NCBI RefSeq assembly: GCF_030815985.1
Contig: NZ_JAUSXM010000001.1
Coordinates: 744,001 to 808,000, forward strand
DNA: 64,000 bases
Direction: 5' to 3'
From: Paenibacillus sp. W2I17
GTDB taxonomy: Bacteria > Bacillota > Bacilli > Paenibacillales > Paenibacillaceae
This document shows positions 49,810 through 61,316 of the stretch, one piece after another; position 1 is the first letter of the stretch; every line of letters begins with the position of its first letter. The notes beneath the pieces were generated by a model that saw only the letters and a list, made by a program, of their open reading frames with translations, made no database searches and was not told the DNA's origin. Both the position numbers and the translations under genes were made by a program.

Positions 49810-50712
49810 CTACGCCACATCCGAACTGCACGGGACTATCAAAGTTAATCCGCGCGGGATAACTTCAATGTCCATTAGCCCAGTAGTGTGCATCTCACCG
49901 TCAATCCCCACTTTTGCTATGTTATCACCAAATTGAGTAATTCTTAAACGCTTTGTCTTAAAATACAAGACATCTGAGCGGTCAAGATGGGTTCCATTTT
50001 TTATATCTAAAAGAAGTTGAAAGGTATTAAACAATGATTTTTTTTGAATTACTAGTACATGAAGTTGACCGTCATCCATCTTGGCATCCGGAATAATGCC
50101 CTCAATTCCGCCAATAATCGCTGATTTTGAAACTAAGTAAAGAAGTGCATCATGTTCTTGTTCTAAATGATCACATTCAATCTTAATATGTGTTCCCGAT
50201 AATATTTTGGGAAGTTTAGGTAGAGCGGACAAATAATAAGCCTTATCCCCTATAACTTTTTTTAGGGTTTGGTTGGTTGTGTAACTGATTGAATTCATTG
50301 CACCACCAGCCAAAACGTAATGAAAATATTCATTTCCAGCCAACCCGATATCTATCTTCTTGGTCATTCCTTTTTCGAGCATTCTAGTGAAACCTTCATA
50401 TGATCGTGGTAATTTCAAAGCATTTCCAAAATCATTGACTGTACCTGTCGGTAGGTAAGCTAGAGGTAAGTCTAGACCTAGATTTTTAATGGTGTTAATG
50501 GCGTAATGCAGGGTTCCGTCACCACCTGCAACAACCAGTGAATCACAATCTTCAAAAAATGAAGTTCCTAAATCATTATTCTCCTTACTTGTGTAGAAGA
50601 TATCATTATCATTTAAAGCGTATTTCTTTTTCATATACTCTATAACTGAAGCCTTCGTTTTATATGCTGTATGCTGCCCTGAAACGGGGTTTACAATCAT
50701 TTTTGGTTTCAT
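49810..50712 (-). CDS. diacylglycerol/lipid kinase family protein
   Basis: 300 residues from the ATG at 50712 behind GAGAGGGAG; the frame also opens at a TTG seven codons earlier inside that ribosome site. Motifs of the DagK/YegS/DgkB family: KMIVNPVSG, the ATP loop DSLVVAGGDGTLHYAIN, LPTGTVNDFGNALKLP and C-terminal VGIDGEMHTTG. Known role of DgkB-like members: phosphorylation of diacylglycerol, largely that released by lipoteichoic-acid synthesis, to phosphatidic acid. Its promoter carries the tandem 12-mer box at 50789-50822, shared with the other genes of this region. Confidence 0.87.
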   Translation of the reverse strand: MKPKMIVNPVSGQHTAYKTKASVIEYMKKKYALNDNDIFYTSKENNDLGTSFFEDCDSLVVAGGDGTLHYAINTIKNLGLDLPLAYLPTGTVNDFGNALKLPRSYEGFTRMLEKGMTKKIDIGLAGNEYFHYVLAGGAMNSISYTTNQTLKKVIGDKAYYLSALPKLPKILSGTHIKIECDHLEQEHDALLYLVSKSAIIGGIEGIIPDAKMDDGQLHVLVIQKKSLFNTFQLLLDIKNGTHLDRSDVLYFKTKRLRITQFGDNIAKVGIDGEMHTTGLMDIEVIPRGLTLIVPCSSDVA

Positions 50713-50788
50713 CACTGGAATGCTCCCTCTCAATAGATTCCCTTTCCTTTATGATTCAAGTCTATATTCTTTACGAATGTACAACATC

Positions 50789-50822
50789 GTACATAAGGGC
50801 GAATGTTCCTTCCCTTTCGGGT
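50789..50822 (-). promoter_or_regulatory. tandem 12-mer box upstream of the kinase gene
   Basis: GCCCTTATGTAC (50800-50789, minus strand) and ACCCGAAAGGGA (50822-50811), 22 bp apart, ending 77 bp before the start codon. The first 12-mer differs from GCCCRAAYGTAC at two places. Confidence 0.6.
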
Positions 50823-50969
50823 ATCTATGAATAAAATGAACATCTAAAAGACGCGTCGTTCATGGAATACTTCATTTTTAATTTATCAATTTTCCTTATG
50901 TAGTAAGTACCATATTTTATTATTCATGCCTGAATTCATTTACTTTGGTCTGGCTAGGTTATACATAAT

Positions 50970-51003
50970 GCCCGAAAGGGCAGAATAAATCTGCCTTTTA
51001 GAA
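50970..51003 (+). promoter_or_regulatory. tandem 12-mer box upstream of the lipoprotein gene
   Basis: GCCCGAAAGGGC (50970-50981) followed 22-23 bp later by a weaker GCCTTTTAGAAC. A promoter-like pair TTACAA, 17 bp, TATATG follows a few bases downstream, so the box is placed as an activator site. Confidence 0.55.
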
Positions 51004-51108
51004 CGATGTTACAATTTTTTTTCAGTTGTAGTATATGTATAAGCTATTAATTTTGTTTTTGGTATAGCGAAGCATGATGTTTATTCAACTATTGAGAGGA
51101 GAAAGATT

Positions 51109-52215
51109 ATGAAGAATACTACGATAAGAATGTTGACGGCAAGTCTGACAGCTTTGGCCATTATGACAGTTGCTGTGGGTTGTACAAGTAATACAAATTC
51201 GAGCCCTTCCAAAGTTGAGGAGAATTTGAACTCGGGCGAATCTACGGTCAGTATTTCTGACTCTTACGATAATACCGAAGAGCTAGCGGCTACTTTCCCC
51301 ATCATTAACCCCACACCAATCGAGACTGAGATGGAAAAGAATATACAGAATAGACTCCTAAACGGCTTTGAGAACTGGAATCGAGGTTATGAAGCCTGGG
51401 AAGCCTGGGGCGACATTCTATATACAGACGACTCCCTCTATAATGTCCACAGCGTGAAACTCACTTTGAAAGAATATCAAGATGCCATGAATGCGCAGCT
51501 GAAGTCTACCAATATTCAGATGGGTAATTTCAACAATATGATCATTAATGACGATTGGGCAGCTATTCGATATGACATCTCTTCGACTGCCAGAGGGAGC
51601 CAACAATCTTCCGATGGAAGCGTGATGGAGTTCGTCCATTTCAAAGACTATGGTGATCCGCTGGGAACTCGGGTTGTTGAAGGTTGGGCTGGTACAAAGG
51701 GGACGGATTTTGACGGGTTGACAAGTTTCCAAACCGATGAGGCGAAGGCGGCACAGCAAGCTGCATTGGATGAAATAGTCAATGCAAAGATCCCTGATAC
51801 CACAGATCTCGAAACAAAATATCCTGTTACTTATCCTACGCCTATTAACACCGATATGGCTAAGAAAATTCAAAGCACCATATTGAGCGACTTTGATAAA
51901 TGGAATCAGGGCTTTGATGCTTGGAGTGACTGGGCCGATACGTATTATGACAGCGACCTGCAATATCATACAAATGCAGAAACAATGACTTTCCCGGAGT
52001 ATAAGGATTTCGTGAAGAAAGATGCGGAATCGACCGATGTAAAGCGTATTCGTTTTGATAATATGCTTATCAGCGGTGACTGGGCAGCCATTCACTATAG
52101 AATTACCAATGAGGACACGAAGACAGGGAAAAAAACTGCTGGCGACATAATGCAGTTTTTACACTTTGCCGAGGAGGGTAACAGCTTAAAAGTTATTGAA
52201 TCCTGGACCAAGTGA
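51109..52215 (+). CDS. lipoprotein with two tandem NTF2/SnoaL-like domains
   Basis: 368 residues. Lipoprotein signal (LTALAIMTVAVGCTS). Two repeats of about 130 residues follow: PIETEMEKNIQNRLLNGFEN, WNRGYEAWEAWGDILYTDD, INDDWAAIRYDIS, then PINTDMAKKIQSTILSDFDK, WNQGFDAWSDWADTYYDSD, ISGDWAAIHYRIT. Each ends with a FVHF/FLHF-x-WxG/T strand as in the NTF2-like fold. This points to an internal duplication. Exposed outside the membrane; ligand unknown. ATG after GAGAGGAGA. Its promoter has the shared box at 50970. Confidence 0.82.
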   Translation: MKNTTIRMLTASLTALAIMTVAVGCTSNTNSSPSKVEENLNSGESTVSISDSYDNTEELAATFPIINPTPIETEMEKNIQNRLLNGFENWNRGYEAWEAWGDILYTDDSLYNVHSVKLTLKEYQDAMNAQLKSTNIQMGNFNNMIINDDWAAIRYDISSTARGSQQSSDGSVMEFVHFKDYGDPLGTRVVEGWAGTKGTDFDGLTSFQTDEAKAAQQAALDEIVNAKIPDTTDLETKYPVTYPTPINTDMAKKIQSTILSDFDKWNQGFDAWSDWADTYYDSDLQYHTNAETMTFPEYKDFVKKDAESTDVKRIRFDNMLISGDWAAIHYRITNEDTKTGKKTAGDIMQFLHFAEEGNSLKVIESWTK

Positions 52216-52300
52216 CCCAGGTGTTTATGAGAAAACCAATAACACTTATTAGAAACTGCGGACTACAAGTTCAGATTTGTTCAGCAAGCATAAAACACAT

Positions 52301-52340
52301 TACGGGAAGTATCCAGCAATGGACGCTTCCCGTATATGTT
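52301..52340 (+). terminator. terminator after the lipoprotein gene
   Basis: Stem TACGGGAAG / CTTCCCGTA with tail TATGTTTTAT. Confidence 0.65.
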
Positions 52341-52476
52341 TTATGAATGTATTTCTGATCATCACTAAAATAATGAATTATTCCAATTATATGTTCCCAA
52401 TATAGTGTACTTAATTCATATTTCAATAATCAGCTTGCTTGTTTGATCCGATAATGATAAGCGTTTATAGAAAAAC

Positions 52477-53085
52477 CTAAAGTAAATAAGATAAAATGTA
52501 CATCCACATAATTAAAACAATGACATTTGCAAAATCTCCGTACAAATCGCTGTATTGGTTGTTAAAATGATTAAGATAATACGAGTATGCAAATGTTGAA
52601 ACTACCCATACTGTGCTCGTAAAAAGCGCTCCAAAATTCGTATACTTTCCTGGAATTCGATATCTAGGAGTAACCATATAAACAATTTTAATTGTAAAAA
52701 ATAAAAACATTAAAACTACAGGCCATCTCAAAATAGCTAACAACAGTTTTGTTATCTCATTAATGCCTTTAAGTAAATCGAAATGCAAAATAATACTACT
52801 ATAGCTATATACCAACAAGCTAAATATGATAATAATGACCAACATGATGGTCAGAAGAAGTGCTTTCAATCGACGAAGAAAATAGTTTCGATGTTTAAAC
52901 CCAAACAGTGTGTCCGAACAGACAAGCACTGCATGCATTCCGTTAGAAGCTAGAATAAATGCAAAGACCGTCCAAACACCACTATGAAGTGTGAGCCCTT
53001 TGATCATAATCAAGATTGGAATAAGAGATAATTTTGAACAAAAGCCCCGCCATAGAATTGAATACGGCAGAGCATATACACTCAT
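52477..53085 (-). CDS. YihY/BrkB-family membrane protein, shortened
   Basis: 202 residues, about 80 fewer than usual. Several helices with family features (WTVFAFILASNGMHAVLVCSD, NYFLRRLKALLLTIML, SSIILHF, LLAILRWPVVLMFLFFTIKI, YRIPGKYTNFGALFTSTVWV, YGDFANVIVLIMWMYILSYL). The first one or two helices and the usual C-terminal LGAEINA are missing. The start ATG has GGAGTG directly before it. It may be a degraded gene or a short variant. Lies 59 bp after dedA on the same strand. Confidence 0.6.
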   Translation of the reverse strand: MSVYALPYSILWRGFCSKLSLIPILIMIKGLTLHSGVWTVFAFILASNGMHAVLVCSDTLFGFKHRNYFLRRLKALLLTIMLVIIIIFSLLVYSYSSIILHFDLLKGINEITKLLLAILRWPVVLMFLFFTIKIVYMVTPRYRIPGKYTNFGALFTSTVWVVSTFAYSYYLNHFNNQYSDLYGDFANVIVLIMWMYILSYLL

Positions 53086-53144
53086 TCACTCCAGAAACTA
53101 AATGGAAACCTAGCTTTTAGGAATAAAACCAATTTTATCATATA

Positions 53145-53648
53145 TCAATATCCCAAGATTTGCATCATTGATAAAACAGGTTCTTTAAAATAAATGCCTA
53201 AAGCAAAATAGGTTATTGTCCAGGTCACAGCACTTGAATACGTAAAGATAGCAAATTTCTTGAAATGAATCTCGCTCATTCCTATCAGTAAGGGCATGAT
53301 ATAGCGCACCATCGGAATGAACATTCCAATGAACATTGCTAAATCGCCCTTTCTCTTCAATATAGATTCCGCTCTTAAGAAGTAACGATTGTCTAACCAT
53401 CTTTTTTTGAATTTATGACCAAAAAATCTTCCTATGGTATAGGAAATTGTGATTGCCGTCAATAAGCCTGTTAGAATGGAGCTGTAAGCTGCCCAATAAT
53501 TGACGACACCTGTATGGCTTAATATCGATCCAGATACAATAATAATTTCGTTAGGTACAGGAATGCCAAACGGACCTAGTGAAAAAGCTAGAAAAAAGAA
53601 TACATATCCATACTGAGTAACAAGTTCTAATAACGTATCACTAAACAT
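53145..53648 (-). CDS. DedA-family membrane protein
   Basis: 167 residues with the VTT/SNARE-associated core: GPFGIPVPNEIIIVSGSIL, GLLTAITISYTIGRFFGHKF, then GDLAMFIGMFIPMVRYIMPL with the conserved Arg, and GMSEIHFKKFAIFTYSSA. DedA proteins move or scramble lipids; some recycle undecaprenyl phosphate or phosphatidylethanolamine. It follows the Asp23 gene by 236 bp, most of which is a 164-bp inserted MITE, so the two probably formed one operon. Confidence 0.87.
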   Translation of the reverse strand: MFSDTLLELVTQYGYVFFFLAFSLGPFGIPVPNEIIIVSGSILSHTGVVNYWAAYSSILTGLLTAITISYTIGRFFGHKFKKRWLDNRYFLRAESILKRKGDLAMFIGMFIPMVRYIMPLLIGMSEIHFKKFAIFTYSSAVTWTITYFALGIYFKEPVLSMMQILGY

Positions 53649-53704
53649 TATACTGTATTCAGCTCCTCATGCTGTCGGAGTAGTTCTCGAAATAACCATG
53701 ATAT

Positions 53705-53868
53705 TAGGACGTGTCTCCAAACTCGCTGAAGTGCATCTTTCACCGCCTTTTCGCCCTCTGCTGCGTCAGTTTCCCTTGATGTTCCCCGGCACGCCTGCAG
53801 AAAACTTCCTGGCTTGGAACAAAAATTTGGCAAAATCTGCCTCCTTCAGAGTTTTCAGACACGCCCTA
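53705..53868. mobile_element. 164-bp MITE with about 25-bp terminal inverted repeats
   Basis: The left end TAGGACGTGTCTCCAAACTC and the right end, read on the other strand, TAGGGCGTGTCTGAAAACTC, agree at 17 of 20 bases and both continue into GAAG. The boundaries suggest a TA target. No ORF. It lies 17 bp past the Asp23 stop, inside the presumed asp23-dedA operon. Confidence 0.7.
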
Positions 53869-53884
53869 GATTCCAACTGTGTTC

Positions 53885-54244
53885 TCATGACTGTCTCGTT
53901 TCGGCCAGTTTAATTCCCTCAACACGAATGTGGACTTGATCTGGAGAAATACCCGTCATATTATTCACCGCTTCAAATATGCTGGACTGTAATTCACGGC
54001 TGACATATTGGATTTTCACTCCGTAAGGTACAACAATTCTAAGCTCGATGATTAATTTTGAGTTTGAGAATGTAACAGATACTCCTTTATGCATTTTTTT
54101 CCCACTCACTTGTTTAATCATGCTATCTACGGCTCCTGTTGACAACAGTATAATCCCAGATTCTAACCTTGCAACTACGGAAACAATTGTTGTAATCGCC
54201 TGCTCTAAAACATTTATCTTCCCTATATCTGTATGTATAATCAA
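53885..54244 (-). CDS. Asp23/Gls24-family envelope-stress protein
   Basis: 119 residues. The Asp23 pattern is clear: GKINVLEQAITTIVSVVARL, GIILLST, SVTFSNSKLIIELRIVVPYG, VSRELQSSIFEAVNNMTGIS and DQVHIRVEGIKL. Start is TTG at 54244, nine bases after AAGGAGA. In staphylococci Asp23 lies under the membrane and its loss triggers a cell-wall stress response. The promoter carries the clearest copy of the tandem 12-mer box (54320-54353), 76 bp before the start. Confidence 0.88.
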   Translation of the reverse strand: MIIHTDIGKINVLEQAITTIVSVVARLESGIILLSTGAVDSMIKQVSGKKMHKGVSVTFSNSKLIIELRIVVPYGVKIQYVSRELQSSIFEAVNNMTGISPDQVHIRVEGIKLAETRQS

Positions 54245-54319
54245 TTTTTAACGTCTCCTTTAAAACAATTTAATAGAAGGTATGTACCCATTTTATCTTT
54301 AATTAGAAATTAGCGTAAT

Positions 54320-54353
54320 GTACCTTGGGGCAGAGAGCATTGTACCTTTGGGC
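54320..54353 (-). promoter_or_regulatory. tandem 12-mer box upstream of asp23 (clearest copy)
   Basis: On the minus strand GCCCAAAGGTAC (54353-54342) and GCCCCAAGGTAC (54331-54320), two near-identical direct repeats exactly 22 bp apart. A -10-like TAAAAT follows about 25 bp downstream. Confidence 0.7.
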
Positions 54354-54360
54354 ATATACT

Positions 54361-54597
54361 TCAATTGTTGAATATCTCATTACATCCCATTTCAGGTCTA
54401 TTTAAAATTGGATACAATAGGTCTAATCAACCACACAAAGGGCTTAGTTCATATCTGAGGAACAAACGATGGGAAACATTATTACATACCTAAAATGGCC
54501 ATACCACTTCCTGGTACATCTTTTTTGCAGGTACCTATTTAATTATTTCAGGCGCTGCAGAAACAATGGCAGCAATATACAATATCACTTATAGACA
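54361..54597 (+). other. probable gene tail of unknown family
   Basis: Near 54500-54621 one plus frame reads TSWYIFFAGTYLIISGAAET then MAAIYNITYRQQAKGDID and a stop inside the terminator at 54598. It is protein-like with one membrane helix but has no start in frame. The rest of the stretch shows nothing. Confidence 0.3.
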
Positions 54598-54640
54598 ACA
54601 AGCAAAGGGAGACATCGACTAAAGATGTCTCCCTTTGCTT
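54598..54640. terminator. strong hairpin terminator
   Basis: A perfect 18-bp stem CAAGCAAAGGGAGACATC / GATGTCTCCCTTTGCTTG, 22 bp past the LTA-synthase stop. The U tract is weak, but the stem is the longest in the window. Confidence 0.75.
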
Positions 54641-54661
54641 GTATCCCTAAGGACGAAATAA

Positions 54662-56581
54662 TTAATCTTCAATCATTTCATGCTGACTCTCATTCTCCCG
54701 ATTACTGTAGATATCAGGTAACTGTAATAAATAGCTATTGGAAATGTCAAGTAAATACTGGGCGGCCGAGAATTGAGATGGAGTAGATCCCCCTTCCACG
54801 CTACTGTTATTACTTAATTCATAATGTACTCCGTCGGCATAATTATTACCTGTCATATATAATATTTTATCATTTATAAAAGAACCCTCAGGTAGAAAGT
54901 GTCTTAACGGAATCAAATTACTCTCTTGATTAAACAGGTCTTCACCTAAAACAAGTTGATGTCCCAAGGGAGTTCCCAACAGGTTGGCTACGGTTGGCAG
55001 AATATCAATTTGTCCACCTGTAGTGTTTATTACAGGAGGAAGTTGCCCTGAAGGCGAATGCACAATGAAAGGGATGTTCATCATATCTGTGTACCCATAG
55101 TCATGATCTAACAAGGAATTCATCAGTTCCTTTTCTTCTCCTGTAAGCCCAGTCATTGGAATCCCCTGGTGATCTCCATAAAAAACGACCAAGCTGTTAT
55201 CCCATAGTCCAGATTCTATCATTTCGTCAAGAAACTGACCCAGGGCAACATCGGCATAATTTTGAGCCTGAATATAATCACCGATCAATGTATCCTTGAA
55301 ACGATCAGGCAGCTCGATTTTAACCTTTTCTTCAGGCAAGTGATAGGGATGATGTGCACTCATGGATATGACCATTGCATAGAACGGTTGATTCCGTTCA
55401 TCCAAAATGGACATTTCAGAAGATGTTTTGGAGTACAAAACTTCATCTGATGCGCCAAAAGCAATAGGATCATCTTCTCCGAAAAATGCTCGATCATAAT
55501 AACGTTCAAAACCAATTGCACGATACAATTTATTGCGATTCCAAAAATCCACACTATTGGTATGGAACGTCGCTGTGAAATATCCATTTTCCTTAAGTAA
55601 ATGTGGTAGACTTGGCAGTTGTTTATCCATATATTTTGATGAAGTTGCTGGTTCATTCTTAGGTACGTAAAAGGATGTATTTACGACGAACTCGGCATCC
55701 GAGGTTGTCCCCTGTCCAGCATTAGAATAGAAATGAGGGAAATAAGTATTGTTCTTAATTAACTGATTTAAATTAGGTGTGATCTCTTGACCATCCATTT
55801 TGAGTTCAATCAAAAAATTTTGAAAGGATTCCATCTGTACGAGAATTAAATTCATGCCTTTATTGATTCCATGAAACTTCGGTGCATCTTTAAGTGGAGA
55901 ATTTCCTTTGGTTTCATTGATTGCCTCTTGCGAGATATCACCAGGAGCTATAAGTACTTCCTTCTCCAAACGATCGGCAACAACCTTATAGACTTCATAG
56001 TTAAGAATCCCCATACTCTTCGCTTTATTGATTTCGTTCATACTAGCATGGACCGGCCAGATTTTGAATAAACATAATGCGAATGATGCGCTGATCGTAC
56101 AAGTTAACACCTTGTGACTCATACGTAAAGCAGGCTTCTTCCAGATTGAACCATACTTAGGTTGGATAATTAAAACTAAGAATAAGACAATGTCGATAAA
56201 CAAAAATAGATAATAGGGTGTAAGCAATGATAATGCGCTTTCTCCTACATGAGTAACCTTTTTGGCTTGTTTAAGTGAATGATACGTAGCGATAACACCA
56301 TAATATTTGTAGTACATGATGACCGCAAAATAAATTAACGTCATGCAGAAATTGACCAGCATGTAGTATAAAACTTTCCTCTTGGCAGCAAACCATTCAA
56401 TCAGGCTGAACATCAGGATAAAGAAAGGGAGCTCTGTTTGAATAATAGCCCAATTGGCTCCATCATGAAATACAACAGACCATGCTACTACACTTTTCAA
56501 CAGGAGAATAAAACTAAATAAACACAGATTTTTATAGGCTCGGCGATGTAATCTACCCGCGCCTTCATTTCTTTTGTACAT
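54662..56581 (-). CDS. lipoteichoic-acid synthase family protein (LtaS-like)
   Basis: About 639 residues; the ATG at 56581 has AGAGG at good spacing, while the ATG three codons earlier abuts it. Five N-terminal helices (to about residue 175), then an extracellular sulfatase-fold domain: metal-binding Glu (ILVQMESFQNF), catalytic Thr about residue 293 in AGQGTTSDAEF, WNRNKLYRAIGFERYYD, and the Asp-His pair VVFYGDHQG. LtaS uses phosphatidylglycerol to build the glycerol-phosphate chain of lipoteichoic acid and releases diacylglycerol. The diacylglycerol kinase at 49810 is a natural partner. No tandem box was found before this gene. Confidence 0.9.
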   Translation of the reverse strand: MYKRNEGAGRLHRRAYKNLCLFSFILLLKSVVAWSVVFHDGANWAIIQTELPFFILMFSLIEWFAAKRKVLYYMLVNFCMTLIYFAVIMYYKYYGVIATYHSLKQAKKVTHVGESALSLLTPYYLFLFIDIVLFLVLIIQPKYGSIWKKPALRMSHKVLTCTISASFALCLFKIWPVHASMNEINKAKSMGILNYEVYKVVADRLEKEVLIAPGDISQEAINETKGNSPLKDAPKFHGINKGMNLILVQMESFQNFLIELKMDGQEITPNLNQLIKNNTYFPHFYSNAGQGTTSDAEFVVNTSFYVPKNEPATSSKYMDKQLPSLPHLLKENGYFTATFHTNSVDFWNRNKLYRAIGFERYYDRAFFGEDDPIAFGASDEVLYSKTSSEMSILDERNQPFYAMVISMSAHHPYHLPEEKVKIELPDRFKDTLIGDYIQAQNYADVALGQFLDEMIESGLWDNSLVVFYGDHQGIPMTGLTGEEKELMNSLLDHDYGYTDMMNIPFIVHSPSGQLPPVINTTGGQIDILPTVANLLGTPLGHQLVLGEDLFNQESNLIPLRHFLPEGSFINDKILYMTGNNYADGVHYELSNNSSVEGGSTPSQFSAAQYLLDISNSYLLQLPDIYSNRENESQHEMIED

Positions 56582-56699
56582 ACCATTCATCCTCTAAAAT
56601 TATTAAAAAGGAGAAGGAGCAACTCCTCCATCTCCTACAGCGTTAACCTATCTATAATTTTCTGAAATCTATAATTCTCAAGGCACAACCAATTTACGT

Positions 56700-58913
56700 C
56701 TATCCTCTATTTATGGGTTCTGGAAAGAGATCGTGTGAATTCGTACGTGTTTGGTGCCGTTTTTCAACGATTTCCATTACCTTCTCACCCTCAACATCCA
56801 AGTTCGGCAGAAGTCGATCTAACCATTTCGGCAAGTACCACGCCGATTTACCCATAAGTATCATCACACCTGGGACAATCAATAGACGGACAACAAATGC
56901 ATCAAACAATACCCCAAAGAGAAGTGCAAAACTCATTACCTTGATACTTGGATCATTCGTCATCATAAACCCTGCAAATACGGATATCATGATCAATCCT
57001 GCAGCTGTAACTACGCCCCCACTGTTCCGGATTCCCGCCAGTACGGATTGTTTGGCATCACCGTTCTTTTTGAAGTCCTCACGCATGCGGCTAACCAGAA
57101 ATACCTCATAGTCCATAGCCAATCCAAACAAGATTCCAACAACCATTATCGGTAAAAAGTTAAGCACAAGTGATTGTCCGCTGAAGCCGAAGAGATTTTG
57201 AAAATATCCATCCTGGACAACGTAGGTAATGAATCCCATTGTTGCTCCAAGCGAGAGAACAAAACCCAGCACTGCTTTAATTGGAACCAAGATAGAACGA
57301 AATACCATCATTAATAGGAGAAAGGCCAAACTAACAATTATGACACAGAACTCAGGTAATGCTTCGTTCAGTTTTTGAGAAATATCAATATTGATTGCTG
57401 TACTGCCCGTTATTTTAAGTTGCACATGGTTCTGACTTTCAATCTCAGGAATATGACTGCGAATCGTTTTAACAAGTTCTACCGTTTCCACATCAGCATG
57501 ACCTGTAGCCGGTATAATGTTAATCAAAGAGACTTTTCCAGATGCACTTTTAACCGGATCGGCAACCATCCCAATGTTTGGATAGGTTTTAAGTTGTTCT
57601 ACTGTTTTCGCCAAATTAACATCAGCTTCAGCACTTCCATCCGTTTTTGCAAGAATCATCAGAGGGTTATGGTAACCCACACCGTATGCTTCAGACAACA
57701 TATCGTATGCTCGTCGTTCCGTCATACTGGTTGACTTTAATCCATCATCCATAGTACCTGTTTCCATGTGTAAGAATGGTACCGATAATGTCGAGAGGAG
57801 TGCCACTCCGAGAACCACTGTGATCCAAGGTCGTCCTGTCACTAATCTCCCCCACAGATTTCCTCGAGATGTTGTCTGATTCAATCTCCCAGAGTTCTTT
57901 ATCGGCTTAACCTTTATCTTGCTACCCATTGCGTCAAGGACTGCCGGTACTGTGATTATTGCAATTAAAACAGCTACAAAAATACAAAGCGCAGCAGCTA
58001 ACCCCATTGCTGTAAGGAAAGGAATTCCTACGACTGCCATACCTGCAAGACCAATAATTACGGTTACACCTGCAAAAACAACTGCACTGCCTGCTGTACC
58101 GTTAGCTATTGCAATAGCTTCTCTTTTCTCAAAACCTCGTGCACGCTCTTGACGGTATCTTGAAATAATGAATAGTGCGTAATCAATACCTACTGCAAGT
58201 CCAATCATACTCGCCAATGATAAGGCAAATGAAGGTGTATCTAAGAAATTAGACCCCAGGATGATCAGCATTACGCCGGTACCAAGACCAATGACTGCTG
58301 TTAGAATCGGAATGATTCCAGTGAGTAGGGATCCGAAAGCAATGGAAAGTATAACAAGTGCAATTAGAATACCAATTCCTTCTGTAGCTCCACCGATCTC
58401 CATCTTCACATAACCAGATCCAGTGAGCTCCGCTTGGAGTCCAGCATTCCGTAAAGCTTCTGCGGCATGAATTACGTACTCTTTAGAAGTTTCTTTAACA
58501 TCACCATCAGCCTTGTTATAAGAGATTGACGCATAAGCGATTGTGCCATCCGCGTTCAACGATTTGTTATCAAATGGGCCGGAGACTTCAGTAACAGCAG
58601 GATCTTTTGATATGCTCTGAAGTTGTGTTTCAATCAGTTGTTTTATCTTTTCAGATGATAATGTTTCGTTAGCAGGTGCTTTGAGAACCAGCTGGATTTC
58701 TTTACTGGTATCTATCATTGACGGAAACTCCTGGTACATCTGTCCCATCGTTTCAATTGACTCTAACCCGGGTATCGTAGTTTCTTCACTAAGTTTCGGT
58801 CCCATTCCCATTGCCACCATTGAGGTAATCAACATGACCATAATTGATCCGATGATTACCTTCATGCGGTTCTTGGCAGACCAAAATCCCAGTCTGTATA
58901 ACATTTTTGCCAT
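56700..58913 (-). CDS. ydfJ: MMPL-family RND exporter (YdfJ-like)
   Basis: 737 residues with two MMPL halves, each one helix, an extracytoplasmic loop and a five-helix bundle. Signature segments: GLAVGIDYALFIISRYRQER near 240 and GLAMDYEVFLVSRMREDFKK near 600. MMPL proteins export lipids or lipophilic compounds by proton drive. In B. subtilis YdfJ is controlled by the YdfHI system; here the same kind of two-component pair lies just upstream. ATG after GAGGAG. Own promoter with the tandem box at 58986. Confidence 0.88.
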   Translation of the reverse strand: MAKMLYRLGFWSAKNRMKVIIGSIMVMLITSMVAMGMGPKLSEETTIPGLESIETMGQMYQEFPSMIDTSKEIQLVLKAPANETLSSEKIKQLIETQLQSISKDPAVTEVSGPFDNKSLNADGTIAYASISYNKADGDVKETSKEYVIHAAEALRNAGLQAELTGSGYVKMEIGGATEGIGILIALVILSIAFGSLLTGIIPILTAVIGLGTGVMLIILGSNFLDTPSFALSLASMIGLAVGIDYALFIISRYRQERARGFEKREAIAIANGTAGSAVVFAGVTVIIGLAGMAVVGIPFLTAMGLAAALCIFVAVLIAIITVPAVLDAMGSKIKVKPIKNSGRLNQTTSRGNLWGRLVTGRPWITVVLGVALLSTLSVPFLHMETGTMDDGLKSTSMTERRAYDMLSEAYGVGYHNPLMILAKTDGSAEADVNLAKTVEQLKTYPNIGMVADPVKSASGKVSLINIIPATGHADVETVELVKTIRSHIPEIESQNHVQLKITGSTAINIDISQKLNEALPEFCVIIVSLAFLLLMMVFRSILVPIKAVLGFVLSLGATMGFITYVVQDGYFQNLFGFSGQSLVLNFLPIMVVGILFGLAMDYEVFLVSRMREDFKKNGDAKQSVLAGIRNSGGVVTAAGLIMISVFAGFMMTNDPSIKVMSFALLFGVLFDAFVVRLLIVPGVMILMGKSAWYLPKWLDRLLPNLDVEGEKVMEIVEKRHQTRTNSHDLFPEPINRG

Positions 58914-58985
58914 TTCAGTATCGTCTCCTCTGCTCTATATCTTAAATATAATCTTATTTTATAATTAGTTTTAGACAGCAACATC

Positions 58986-59018
58986 GTCCCAATGGGCATT
59001 TGAATCTGCCCTTTGGGG
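58986..59018 (-). promoter_or_regulatory. tandem 12-mer box upstream of the MMPL gene
   Basis: Minus strand CCCCAAAGGGCA (59018-59007) and GCCCATTGGGAC (58997-58986), 21 bp apart, ending 73 bp before the start codon. Confidence 0.65.
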
Positions 59019-59098
59019 AATGCTATATCAAGGGAATATTCTTTTTTTGGATCTAATCTACAATATATGTACTTAATGTCATCAAATCTATACCAACG

Positions 59099-59135
59099 GA
59101 AAAAGCATGCAGGTCGGTACCCTGCATGCTTTTTC
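59099..59135 (-). terminator. terminator of the two-component operon
   Basis: Stem AAAAGCATGCAGG / CCTGCATGCTTTT, 14 bp past the response-regulator stop. Confidence 0.85.
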
Positions 59136-59148
59136 AGTTGATCAATAA

Positions 59149-59796
59149 TTATAGTTTCAGAATACCTCGATCTAGTGCAGTTGCTACTGCTTGTGACCGC
59201 GAATCTACCCCAAGTTTATTGTATATGTTCGTTAGATGAGCCTTGACTGTTCGTTCTCCAATATTCATGTCAAATGCTATTTCTTTGCTTTTATACCCTT
59301 TAGCCACGCATTGCAAAATGTAGTTTTCTTTATCACTCAAAAGTTTGACATCTTGCTTGACTTCTTGTTGCGATTTTAATTTAGCAGCCATTACTCGCTC
59401 TAGCATCTCCTCAGATAAGAGCATTTCCCCCTGCATTGCAGAATCAATGCTTCTGAACAAGCTTTCTCTGCTTGTATCTTTTAACAAATACCCTTTGGCT
59501 CCCAAAGCCAACCCGTTAATCATCAGTTCATCCTCGTTATACGTGGTCAGGATAATAATAGGGATCGTAAGGCCTTTCTTCTTGAATTCCTTCATCGTTT
59601 CGAGTCCACTCAGAACAGGCATATTCAGATCCATTAGAATTATGTCAGGCTCAAGCTTTTCAACCTTCTCAAGCGCATCCTGTCCATTTACAGCTTCCCC
59701 TACGACTTGATATTTTTCGCTGGTCTCTAATATGAGCTTGAGTCCTTCACGAACTACAAAATGATCGTCCACCAACATAATTTTATAAGGGCTCAT
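59149..59796 (-). CDS. ydfI: NarL/LuxR-type response regulator (YdfI-like)
   Basis: 215 residues from the ATG at 59796, five bases after AAGGAGG; an upstream in-frame start overlaps that site. Receiver domain with Asp-Asp (LVDDHFVVREG), phospho-acceptor Asp56 (IILMDLNMPVLSG), Thr and Lys. C-terminal LuxR helix-turn-helix (ENYILQCVAKGYKSKEIAFD, GERTVKAHLTNIYNKLGVDS). Overlaps the kinase gene by 14 bp. The tandem boxes upstream of five local promoters are its likely targets. Confidence 0.9.
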   Translation of the reverse strand: MSPYKIMLVDDHFVVREGLKLILETSEKYQVVGEAVNGQDALEKVEKLEPDIILMDLNMPVLSGLETMKEFKKKGLTIPIIILTTYNEDELMINGLALGAKGYLLKDTSRESLFRSIDSAMQGEMLLSEEMLERVMAAKLKSQQEVKQDVKLLSDKENYILQCVAKGYKSKEIAFDMNIGERTVKAHLTNIYNKLGVDSRSQAVATALDRGILKL

Positions 59797-60991
59797 GTTG
59801 ACCTCCTTCATTAATTGTCACCGACATCGTTATGGTTGTACCTTCTGAGCTGCTATCGATCTTGATGTGTCCACCAATCAATCTTGCTCGCTCACGGATT
59901 CCAAGTAATCCATAGTGACCAGGTTTCTTTCCGATCGCATCTGGATTAAAACCTTTTCCATTATCTGATATTTCTATCTGAAGTTGATTGTTCGAGACGA
60001 TAACACTGACTTTTACTACATTGGCATTGGCATGGCGCGCAACATTCGTCAACACCTCTCTGACGATATGAAGACTATGTTCCATCACAACTCTTGATAG
60101 TAGTTGATTCAGTTGTATATTCCAGTCTACCTGAATACCCGTTGAATGTCTGAAGTGCCTTACTTCATCTTCGACAGCTTCCTTAAAATCGATATCAGGT
60201 GCTGATTTAATTCTAAGGTCATCTATTGCCCTGCGTGCTTCAGCCAGTGTTCTACGTGCTTGCTGCATGGATTGAATTATAATGTTATGAGCCTTTTCCG
60301 TATTCCCCTGCATAATGTGCGCGTTGGACGCTTCCAATTGCATAATTAAACCAGCGACTCCTTGGGCAAGAGTATCATGTAAGTCCCTAGCCATTCGCTG
60401 CCGTTCATTGGACAATGTAAGTTCTTCGACCTTTTGATGAGCCACTTGCAGTTCATTCAAAAACTTTTGCAGCTTGACTCGCTCATGAACTTGATGAAAA
60501 AATAGTATTCCATAAGCTATTACGATAATTAGCATCATCACAAAAATCGGAATGAATACCAGCAGTTCCTTTGTACCTCCGACTGTTAAAGAAGAGTCGA
60601 AAAATATGATAATACTAATCAAAGCTATAAATATCACCCTACTTATCCGAAAAGAAAAACCTAAACTTTGGGCAATTAATACGGGGAGCAACCCCACCAA
60701 CACTGCCTGATAACTTCCAGGGAAAAGTATAGCGCACAGGTAAATTAAGATCCCTTGTATTCCAAAGTAAAACCAAAAATGTCTTTGGCTAACCCGATAT
60801 GAAATCCAATGCAACGCGGCGTGGAGAACAAACAGTCCCGTAAATACGAAACTACTGATAACTTTAGGATCATCCAAAAACTGAAGTGTAACAGATCCTG
60901 CGTATACGAAGATCAACCAAATGAGAATGGGCTTTCTTGTTGCAAATAATTCATGTATAGTCTCAAGTTTATTCTTCTTATTAGTCACCAT
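59783..60991 (-). CDS. ydfH: NarL-type sensor histidine kinase (YdfH-like)
   Basis: 402 residues. Five or six helices fill the first 170 residues with almost no outside loop, so it probably senses a signal in the membrane. Then a coiled coil (LNELQVAHQKVEELTLSNE), a HisKA_3 box with the phospho-acceptor His (RQRMARDLHDTLAQGVAGLI), and HATPase motifs VLTNVARHANA and DNGKGFNPD and GLLGIRERA. B. subtilis YdfH has the same size and layout. The ribosome site is weak. Operon with the regulator; a tandem box lies about 290 bp upstream, suggesting autoregulation. Confidence 0.88.
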   Translation of the reverse strand: MVTNKKNKLETIHELFATRKPILIWLIFVYAGSVTLQFLDDPKVISSFVFTGLFVLHAALHWISYRVSQRHFWFYFGIQGILIYLCAILFPGSYQAVLVGLLPVLIAQSLGFSFRISRVIFIALISIIIFFDSSLTVGGTKELLVFIPIFVMMLIIVIAYGILFFHQVHERVKLQKFLNELQVAHQKVEELTLSNERQRMARDLHDTLAQGVAGLIMQLEASNAHIMQGNTEKAHNIIIQSMQQARRTLAEARRAIDDLRIKSAPDIDFKEAVEDEVRHFRHSTGIQVDWNIQLNQLLSRVVMEHSLHIVREVLTNVARHANANVVKVSVIVSNNQLQIEISDNGKGFNPDAIGKKPGHYGLLGIRERARLIGGHIKIDSSSEGTTITMSVTINEGGQHEPL

Positions 60992-61282
60992 AATAACCCC
61001 AGTCCAAGTTTTATCACCTTAATCTCTTTACGTATATTAGCAAAGATACACTTACTTAATGAAACAATCCAGTACCCAGTGAGCTTGCCTTCATTTGCTC
61101 GAAGTTATCCAAGACTTGATTATTAACATTTTCAATATAATGTACAAATTCAATGTTAGGATGGCTTCCTGTACATGCTTGATTACTCCTGTGAAAGCTC
61201 AAAACCATCATCTAAATTACAAATTTTCTTGGGTAAAGGTGCATGCAATCTAATTATAGTACTATAATCCATTCACTACATC

Positions 61283-61316
61283 GCCTAAATGGGTATGTTT
61301 GATTGCCCTTTTGGGC
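61283..61316 (-). promoter_or_regulatory. tandem 12-mer box upstream of the kinase-regulator operon
   Basis: GCCCAAAAGGGC (61316-61305) and ACCCATTTAGGC (61294-61283) on the minus strand, 22 bp apart. It lies 292 bp before the kinase start codon, further than in the other cases, so a long leader or another start must be assumed. Confidence 0.5.

What the first reader, a model, noticed from the sequence alone, without database searches (positions are those of the whole stretch)
49810..61316. Putative YdfHI-like regulon marked by tandem 12-mer boxes at five promoters of an envelope gene cluster
The same two-part box occurs upstream of the diacylglycerol kinase (50789-50822), lipoprotein (50970-51003), Asp23 (54320-54353), MMPL exporter (58986-59018) and histidine kinase (61283-61316) genes. 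Each is a pair of GCCC...GG(T/G)(A/G)C-like 12-mers with a 21-22 bp period, i.e. two helix turns, oriented towards the gene. For kinase, Asp23 and MMPL the box ends 77, 76 and 73 bp before the start codon. As I remember it, the B. subtilis YdfI site is a tandem 12-mer close to GCCCRAAYGTAC; the Asp23 site (GCCCAAAGGTAC) differs from that at one position. Control of Asp23, a lipid kinase and a lipoprotein by a YdfHI-like system would extend the known single-target circuit.
Basis: partly seen in the sequence, partly recalled or inferred. Interest (0 to 1): 0.85.

Follow-up and report, generated by a model that had tools for sequence, protein, structure and literature searches.

The report
Five-promoter envelope regulon with shared boxes
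Five neighbouring promoters in a Paenibacillus-like soil bacterium carry the same two-part control box, evidently the binding site of the two-component regulator encoded beside them, so one membrane sensor probably controls a set of cell-envelope lipid genes and not only a single exporter.

Summary
Two-part boxes stand before the lipid-kinase, lipoprotein, Asp23, MMPL and histidine-kinase genes. A model built from 23 sites of other genomes ranks exactly these five first in the 7.0 Mb genome. Loci of related regulators carry the same composite promoter (103 sites in 70 of 80), mostly before MMPL or kinase genes (57 of 100). In 75 congeneric genomes a site occurs in 41 of 44 with the regulator and 1 of 31 without. 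Close homologues of the window's lipid kinase (5 of 246 genomes) and lipoprotein (5 of 246) are boxed or behind a boxed gene in 9 of 10 cases, the own genome and a near relative counting in both. Best reading: the adjacent kinase and NarL-type regulator form a YdfHI-like system that activates an envelope-lipid regulon. Binding, activation and signal are inferred; B. subtilis YdfI and its published site could not be compared. New variant of a known kind.

The parts
50789..50822 (-). box pair before the lipid kinase gene; 22-bp period
   Evidence: found by R3 (built without window sites)
50759..50788 (-). kinase promoter: -35 GATGTT (50783-50788), 18-bp spacer, -10 TAGACT (50759-50764)
   Evidence: sequence
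49810..50712 (-). diacylglycerol-kinase-like lipid kinase (DAGK_cat, YegS_C; longest ORF to 50733)
   Evidence: TIGR00147 above its cut-off; diacylglycerol-kinase equivalog models below theirs
50970..51004 (+). box pair before the lipoprotein gene; 23-bp period
51005..51034 (+). lipoprotein promoter: -35 GATGTT, 18-bp spacer, -10 TAGTAT
   Evidence: sequence
51109..52215 (+). putative lipoprotein with a SnoaL-like domain; lipobox-like AVGC read by eye
54320..54353 (-). box pair before asp23; the weakest of the five under R3
54290..54319 (-). asp23 promoter: -35 position ATTACG, 18-bp spacer, -10 TAAAAT
   Evidence: sequence
53885..54244 (-). Asp23-family protein
   Evidence: PF03780
58986..59019 (-). 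box pair before the MMPL exporter gene
58956..58985 (-). MMPL promoter: -35 GATGTT, 18-bp spacer, -10 TAAAAT
   Evidence: sequence
56700..58913 (-). MMPL-family (RND superfamily) exporter, YdfJ-like by context
   Evidence: PF03176; an MMPL homologue lies in 50 of 80 named regulator loci
54662..56590 (-). LtaS-like sulfatase-fold membrane protein, 109 bp behind MMPL, no box found before it; probably read from the MMPL promoter
   Evidence: below the LtaS equivalog cut-off; its homologue has its own box in Gorillibacterium (L063 10688-10753)
53145..53648 (-). DedA/VTT-family membrane protein behind asp23
   Evidence: PF09335
52477..53085 (-). YihY/BrkB-family membrane protein, short
   Evidence: PF03631
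61283..61316 (-). box pair before the histidine kinase gene (autoregulation)
61253..61282 (-). kinase-regulator operon promoter: -35 GATGTA, 18-bp spacer, -10 TATAAT
   Evidence: sequence
59783..60991 (-). sensor histidine kinase (HisKA_3), hydrophobic N-terminal part (residues 21-169)
   Evidence: hydropathy
59149..59811 (-). NarL/LuxR-family response regulator, proposed to bind the boxes

Best explanation
The cluster is the regulon of a YdfHI-like two-component system. An intramembrane-type histidine kinase (59783-60991) senses a membrane or lipid condition and phosphorylates its NarL-type regulator (59149-59811). The phosphorylated regulator binds two 12-bp dyad-like boxes 22-23 bp apart (about two helix turns, same face) and, because box 2 ends exactly at the edge of a poor -35 (GATGTT), recruits RNA polymerase to a -10 fixed 18 bp further on. 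It thereby activates its own operon, the MMPL exporter with an LtaS-like gene, Asp23 with DedA- and YihY-like membrane genes, a SnoaL-like lipoprotein and a lipid kinase. Likely purpose: to change membrane-lipid and teichoic-acid-type polymer handling together with lipid export under envelope stress. Shown by computation: the composite promoter, its restriction to these five promoters in the genome, its conservation, its co-occurrence with the regulator and the recurring targets. Inferred: binding, phosphorylation dependence, activation rather than repression, operon limits, signal and purpose.
For: Five composite promoters with identical -35/-10 geometry. Five and only five strong sites in 7.0 Mb. 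In 13 relatives' loci a site lies directly behind the regulator gene in 13 of 13 and before the kinase in 8 of 13. 103 distinct sites in 70 of 80 named loci, 100 of them with a same-strand ORF start within 350 bp: MMPL 41, HK 16, RND pump or adaptor 8, AI-2E 5, Asp23 3, LtaS 1, lipid kinase 1, other 25. In 73 sites found by the boxes alone, a TAnnnT stands exactly 24 bp after box 2 in 67 and at 23 bp in 4, against at most 13 at any other offset. Sites in 41 of 44 genomes with the regulator, 1 of 31 without; leaving out the 10 genomes that trained R2, 31 of 34. GGGC-type boxes gather in one supported branch of the regulator tree that holds the window, 12 of its 14 rows (exceptions below). R1 hits genome-wide in Gorillibacterium and Saccharibacillus fell, unlinked to the regulator, before homologues of the window's lipid kinase (75% and 68%) and, in Saccharibacillus, lipoprotein (69%). 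A lipoprotein homologue in a genome used for no model (G137, same genus as a training genome) was found by protein search and proved boxed; that genome has the regulator on another contig. The window regulator keeps the ComA Arg183 and Thr190 equivalents but not Tyr187 (ComA numbers placed by me), the pattern that PMC3246441 gives for YdfI (passages). A YdfI DNA-binding domain activates PydfJ in B. subtilis (PMC5897336, passages).
Against: No binding or expression data. The window's boxes depart from the relatives' form, and the asp23 site is weak under R3 (E 0.08 genome-wide). The lipoprotein homologue in G051 (75%) has no box although the genome has the regulator. Ten of 80 named loci gave no site. 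Three regulator-bearing genomes lack an R2 site, though R1 finds sites in all three; one genome without regulator (G045) has a weak one. Outside the GGGC branch, L127 has one GGGC-type site beside a GTAC-type one, and the L131 site reads GGGC-type although the script typed it as GTAC. Behind the regulator of L037 and L041 no same-strand gene starts within 300 bp of the site. The training sites of R2 and R3 were first located with R1, so their independence of the window is not complete, and some named loci are the same contigs as unnamed training loci. The genome search scores only its best first-look candidates (150 of 1309; stricter filters), so weak distant sites could be missed. For the window's own DNA-binding domain ComA is only sixth among solved relatives. 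Databases name many close relatives of the regulator DegU or CheY, five of the best 120 YdfI.
Confidence: 0.87

Rival explanations
1. The boxes bind a different LuxR/NarL- or ComA-type regulator encoded elsewhere; the neighbouring two-component pair is only one of its targets.
For: The half-site layout (TTGCCC-N4-GGGCAA at the HK box) resembles the ComA inverted repeat, TTGCGG half-sites with a 4-nt spacer, described in PMC4797271 (passages), so a ComA relative could bind.
Against: Box presence follows this regulator, 41 of 44 against 1 of 31 genomes; box type largely follows the regulator's branch; the five genomes with unlinked or operon-borne kinase or lipoprotein homologues that I checked have the regulator; the ComA Tyr187 equivalent is missing.
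Confidence: 0.06
2. The repeats are RNA elements (intrinsic terminators or attenuators): GCCC...GGGC and CGTACATnAGG...CCTnATGTACG are inverted repeats, followed by a T-run in many relatives.
For: On 24 distinct rows an 11-pair inverted repeat has 87% of cells paired (shuffles 82%) and 12 cells changed on both sides (shuffles 3.8); T-runs of 6-8 follow in 37 of 50 distinct 23-bp-period sites.
Against: In the window and in Saccharibacillus the kinase and lipoprotein boxes lie between divergent genes, upstream of both, where neither gene's transcript ends; the window sites have no such T-run directly behind box 2; the -10 lies at a fixed distance. GTAC is its own reverse complement, so tandem boxes create part of the inverted repeat. 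In one search the number of pairs changed on both sides is not above shuffles (172 of 500 as high), and such counts rise with relatedness.
Confidence: 0.04
3. The system is the regulon of the adjacent pair, but the regulator represses, or works as repressor and activator according to phosphorylation.
For: None direct; the promoters were scored by sequence only.
Against: Box 2 ends at the -35 edge without overlapping the -10, and the -35 is far from TTGACA, which fits class II activation; a YdfI domain acts as activator (PMC5897336 passage).
Confidence: 0.06

Closest known systems
Bacillus subtilis YdfHI-YdfJ two-component system (Serizawa and Sekiguchi 2005; title seen in reference lists, paper not held)
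   Different: Five boxed promoters instead of one named target; lipid kinase, lipoprotein, Asp23 and LtaS-like genes included; GGGC-type box 1; fixed -35/-10 described here
ComA of B. subtilis (PMC4797271 and PMC3246441, passages)
   Same: Closest solved DNA-binding domain of a relative's regulator, sixth for the window's own; inverted half-sites with a 4-bp spacer plus a second site nearer the promoter
   Different: Core GCCC not GCGG; second site is another 12-mer and not TTGCGG-5-TTGCGG; recognition residue Tyr187 missing
LiaSR/VraSR envelope-stress systems
   Same: NarL-type regulator and membrane kinase tied to envelope genes; VraR is second to fourth among full-length solved relatives, behind NarL
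   Different: Different neighbours; no LiaF among the ten proteins scanned; boxes and targets differ (LiaR site from general knowledge)

Membership tests
YdfHI-type two-component system | HisKA_3 sensor kinase next to a NarL/LuxR response regulator | tested here: met
   PF07730, PF02518, PF00072, PF00196; overlapping genes
YdfHI-type two-component system | MMPL gene (YdfJ-like) beside the pair and boxed | tested here: met
   MMPL gene starts 235 bp behind the regulator gene, with the box between them; MMPL homologue in 50 of 80 named regulator loci
   Several relatives' boxes fit it; the window's first boxes are mostly GCCCnAAAGGGC, asp23 GCCCAAAGGTAC one position off. The source paper was not held
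YdfHI-type two-component system | Arg183 and Thr190 equivalents, shared in B. subtilis only by ComA and YdfI (PMC3246441 passage) | tested here: met
   ERTVKAHLTNIYNKL against KRSIEYSLTSIFNKL
YdfHI-type two-component system | Orthology with B. subtilis YdfH/YdfI by sequence | not tested
   The B. subtilis accession tried was not in the collections; YdfI is only a database label on relatives
YdfHI-type two-component system | Regulator binds the boxes and controls the gene | not testable with these tools
   Needs footprinting and expression data
ComA | TTGCGG-N4 inverted repeat and Tyr187 in the recognition helix | tested here: not met
   Core is GCCC; alanine at the Tyr187 place

The most novel reading that the evidence does not exclude
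A YdfHI-like system that in Paenibacillus and allied genera became a dedicated controller of diacylglycerol and teichoic-acid-type lipid turnover: it couples an LtaS-like enzyme (which would release diacylglycerol), a dedicated diacylglycerol-kinase-like enzyme (which would recycle it), an MMPL lipid exporter, a DedA-type lipid carrier and Asp23. The lipid-kinase subfamily was found only under this control (5 of 5 close homologues in 246 genomes), and the box switched between GTAC and GGGC largely together with one regulator branch, so that paralogous systems in one genome, as in P. helianthi, read separate promoters.
Probability: 0.4. Interest if true: 0.75.

Novelty: new variant of a known kind. 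Interest (0 to 1): 0.62.

Why it matters
In the search listings and passages that I saw no signal or purpose was given for YdfHI; PMC5417439 reports from the 2005 study that a YdfJ deletion had no drug phenotype (passage). A multi-gene regulon whose recurrent members handle lipids and the envelope points to what the system senses and does, gives ready reporters, and supplies a predictive promoter rule (two boxes, -35, 18 bp, -10) that can be searched across Bacillales. The branch-linked box switch offers a natural case for studying how a regulator and its sites diverge together.

Tried and rejected
Chance repeats: rejected. Terminator reading: rejected as the main function for the window because of divergent placement; kept as a side observation for relatives. 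ComA membership: rejected on core and Tyr187. Reading the B. subtilis paper and the ComA tripartite-site paper: not held. The B. subtilis locus by accession: not in the collections. The consensus as text: no paper. The first multiple alignment with wide flanks was ragged and was replaced by a tighter one. In the tree rows L059, L068, L103 and L114 stand on extreme branches because the script picked wrong proteins, and L071 and L113 yielded no row; these are not used for the claim. Box type there was read from box 1 only. One search of structure-library sequences with the window's own domain did not put ComA first. Structure prediction and fold search were not used: the families are clear from profiles.

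Literature searches: in the held open library; most subscription papers are missing, so absence there is weak. Papers: PMC3246441, PMC5897336, PMC4797271 and PMC5417439 were seen as passages only; PMC10521742 only as a listing.
Full report
What is in the sequence. The window is bases 744,001-808,000 of a single 7,008,369-base contig; its regulator is 95-97% identical to proteins labelled Paenibacillus. The cluster holds, on the minus strand, a sensor kinase (59783-60991), a NarL/LuxR-type regulator (59149-59811), an MMPL exporter (56700-58913), an LtaS-like protein (54662-56590), an Asp23-family protein (53885-54244), a DedA/VTT protein (53145-53648), a YihY/BrkB protein (52477-53085) and a lipid kinase (ATG at 50712), and on the plus strand a putative lipoprotein (51109-52215). 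LtaS, UptA and diacylglycerol-kinase names are family-level: the equivalog models were matched below their cut-offs, only TIGR00147 (YegS/Rv2252/BmrU lipid kinases) above.

The boxes. Each continues without a gap into a hexamer GATGTT (kinase, lipoprotein, MMPL), GATGTA (HK) or ATTACG (asp23), then exactly 18 bp, then TAGACT (kinase), TAGTAT (lipoprotein), TAAAAT (MMPL), TATAAT (HK) or TAAAAT (asp23). Box 1 at the HK promoter reads TTGCCC-AAAA-GGGCAA, a full dyad with a 4-bp spacer.

Are they more than chance? A sequence-only covariance model of the five (R1) finds the five in the whole genome at E 2e-12 to 3e-9; the next are 0.24 (an echo of the MMPL site on the other strand) and 0.34. Self-matching makes the five strong by construction, but the empty remainder is informative. 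R2, from 25 sites in 12 relatives' loci without any window site, puts the kinase and lipoprotein sites first and second in the genome (2e-4, 0.004; next 0.66). R3, from 23 sites of other genomes, mostly GGGC-type, puts all five window sites at ranks 1-5 (2e-9, 1e-8, 4e-8, 6e-4, 0.08; next 0.8, an echo); with filters off in the window alone they are also ranks 1-5. The sites that trained R2 and R3 were first found with R1, so this is cross-checking, not full independence. E-values of these models are rough by the tool's own statement.

Relatives. In one search, 19 of 39 genomes matched the regulator at E <= 1e-40, 12 of them beside the own genome at 61-97% identity. In 13 fetched neighbourhoods of these a site lies directly behind the regulator gene in 13 of 13 and before the kinase in 8 of 13; the gene behind is MMPL, an RND adaptor and AcrB-type pump, or LtaS, but in L037 and L041 no same-strand gene starts within 300 bp. 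R1 and R2 together found 103 distinct sites in 70 of the 80 at E <= 0.01; some of these contigs are the same as unnamed training loci (equal contig lengths for at least L063, L073, L080, L083, L114). A box-only pattern found 73 sites in 53 loci, against 0, 0, 0, 0 and 1 in five dinucleotide shuffles. All 73 lie on the regulator gene's strand, 69 are outside ORFs of 150 aa or more, 70 have an ORF start within 300 bp, and a TAnnnT stands 24 bp behind box 2 in 67 and 23 bp in 4, against at most 13 at any other offset. Because this pattern holds no -10 information, the fixed -10 is independent evidence of a promoter. The strict pattern finds no site in the window itself.

Regulator and box go together. 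Of 75 congeneric genomes sampled, 44 have the regulator (E <= 1e-55) and 42 an R2 site (E <= 0.001): 41 of 44 with and 1 of 31 without the regulator (Fisher p = 2e-16, relatedness not corrected); without the 10 genomes that trained R2, 31 of 34. The three exceptions with regulator are G016, the window's close relative, and G046 and G047; R1 finds sites in all three. The exception without regulator, G045, has one weak site (3.5e-5); its regulator search stayed empty at 1e-40 too. In a tree of 79 regulator rows, typed by box 1, 12 of the 14 rows of the supported branch that holds the window are GGGC-type (support 99/95), one is GTAC-type (L062) and one has no site; the thirteenth GGGC row, L068, is a wrong protein. 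Against a clean split: L127 has one GGGC-type and one GTAC-type site, and the site of L131 reads GCCCGAAAGGGC but was mistyped by the script. P. helianthi carries a GGGC-type locus (L061) and two GTAC-type loci (L087, L108).

Targets beyond the exporter. Of 100 sites with an ORF start in reach: MMPL 41, kinase 16, RND adaptor or pump 8, AI-2E-type permease 5, Asp23 3, LtaS 1, lipid kinase 1, other 25. Of 20 'other' proteins scanned, 16 matched a Pfam family, among them short-chain dehydrogenases, cytochromes P450, PAF-acetylhydrolase-like lipases, DegV, chemoreceptors, a glycosyltransferase, a second response regulator, an oxidoreductase and a MarR regulator. An unlinked, weaker site in G041 stands before an 85-aa ORF followed by DegV and Asp23 genes. 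R1 over whole genomes hit a cluster in Gorillibacterium about 800 kb from the regulator: box-lipid kinase (75% identical), a second kinase (63%), box-MMPL (65%), and a third box; and in Saccharibacillus alkalitolerans a divergent lipoprotein/lipid-kinase pair (69% and 68%) with one box each, the arrangement of the window, while the regulator lies on another contig. Starting instead from the proteins, 5 of 246 genomes of the order hold a close lipid-kinase homologue (E <= 1e-75): four have a box directly upstream and the fifth (G131, P. camerounensis by coordinates) has the gene behind a boxed MMPL gene in one operon-like run. Five of 246 hold a close lipoprotein homologue (E <= 1e-30): four boxed, including G137 that trained no model, and one (G051) without box. 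The own genome and its near relative G016 count in both sets, so beyond them the tally is 3 of 3 and 2 of 3. The own genome's other MMPL-family frames (6 of 7 by length) have no box.

Mechanism. The kinase has a hydrophobic stretch over residues 21-169, as in intramembrane-sensing kinases (general knowledge). The DNA-binding domain of a relative (L038) is closest to ComA among solved structures; for the window's own domain ComA is sixth. PMC3246441 (passages) states that Arg183 and Thr190 of ComA are shared in B. subtilis only by YdfI and that Tyr187 is unique to ComA; the window regulator has Arg and Thr but alanine in place of Tyr187 (numbers placed by me on the alignment). PMC4797271 (passages) describes ComA sites as an inverted repeat with 4-nt spacer plus a second, direct-repeat site downstream, and assigns them to two activation modes; the layout here is analogous, with a different core. 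PMC5897336 (passages) uses a YdfI domain to activate PydfJ. I therefore infer class II activation from box 2 at the -35. The common thread of targets is lipids and envelope; since LtaS-type enzymes release diacylglycerol and DgkB-type kinases recycle it (general knowledge), a lipid-turnover response is the most pointed functional guess.

Limits. No binding or expression data; no direct B. subtilis comparison; the recalled consensus is unverified; operon limits are guessed from gaps (MMPL to LtaS-like 109 bp, asp23 to DedA 236 bp, DedA to YihY 59 bp). The asp23 site is the weakest of the five by R3. Genome searches score only their best first-look candidates.

Noticed in passing
L033-L043 sites and 52 sites with 23-bp period in L054-L133: In GTAC-type sites the right half of box 1 and box 2 form an inverted repeat (CGTACATnAGG...CCTnATGTACG), and 6-8 T follow in 37 of 50 distinct rows, like a terminator lying on the -35. 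Purpose unknown; the window's sites lack the T-run behind box 2.
   Followed up: partly
window 52477-53085: The YihY/BrkB-family gene is short (202 aa) and matches only profile positions 77-244 of 259; the near relative G016 has a longer ORF (L031 3519-4268, 249 aa). It may be damaged; not examined further.
   Followed up: no
L178 5896-7089: Gorillibacterium timonense has a second, unlinked copy of the kinase (63%) between boxed lipid kinase and boxed MMPL genes, with no regulator homologue marked among the listed ORFs beside it.
   Followed up: no
L061, L087, L108: P. helianthi carries three paralogous regulator loci with two different box types (GGGC and GTAC), a natural test of promoter insulation.
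   Followed up: partly
L107, L115, L116, L121, L127: In Bacillaceae some boxes stand before cytochrome P450 and short-chain dehydrogenase genes, hinting at a lipophilic signal or substrate.
   Followed up: no
window 60992-61252: The predicted promoter of the kinase lies about 260 bp before its start codon, leaving a long untranslated leader.
   Followed up: no
L169, L171, L172: A distal site about 55-60 kb from the regulator stands before a 451-aa gene in three related genomes; in the one scanned (L169) it is glycosyl-hydrolase-53-like.
   Followed up: partly
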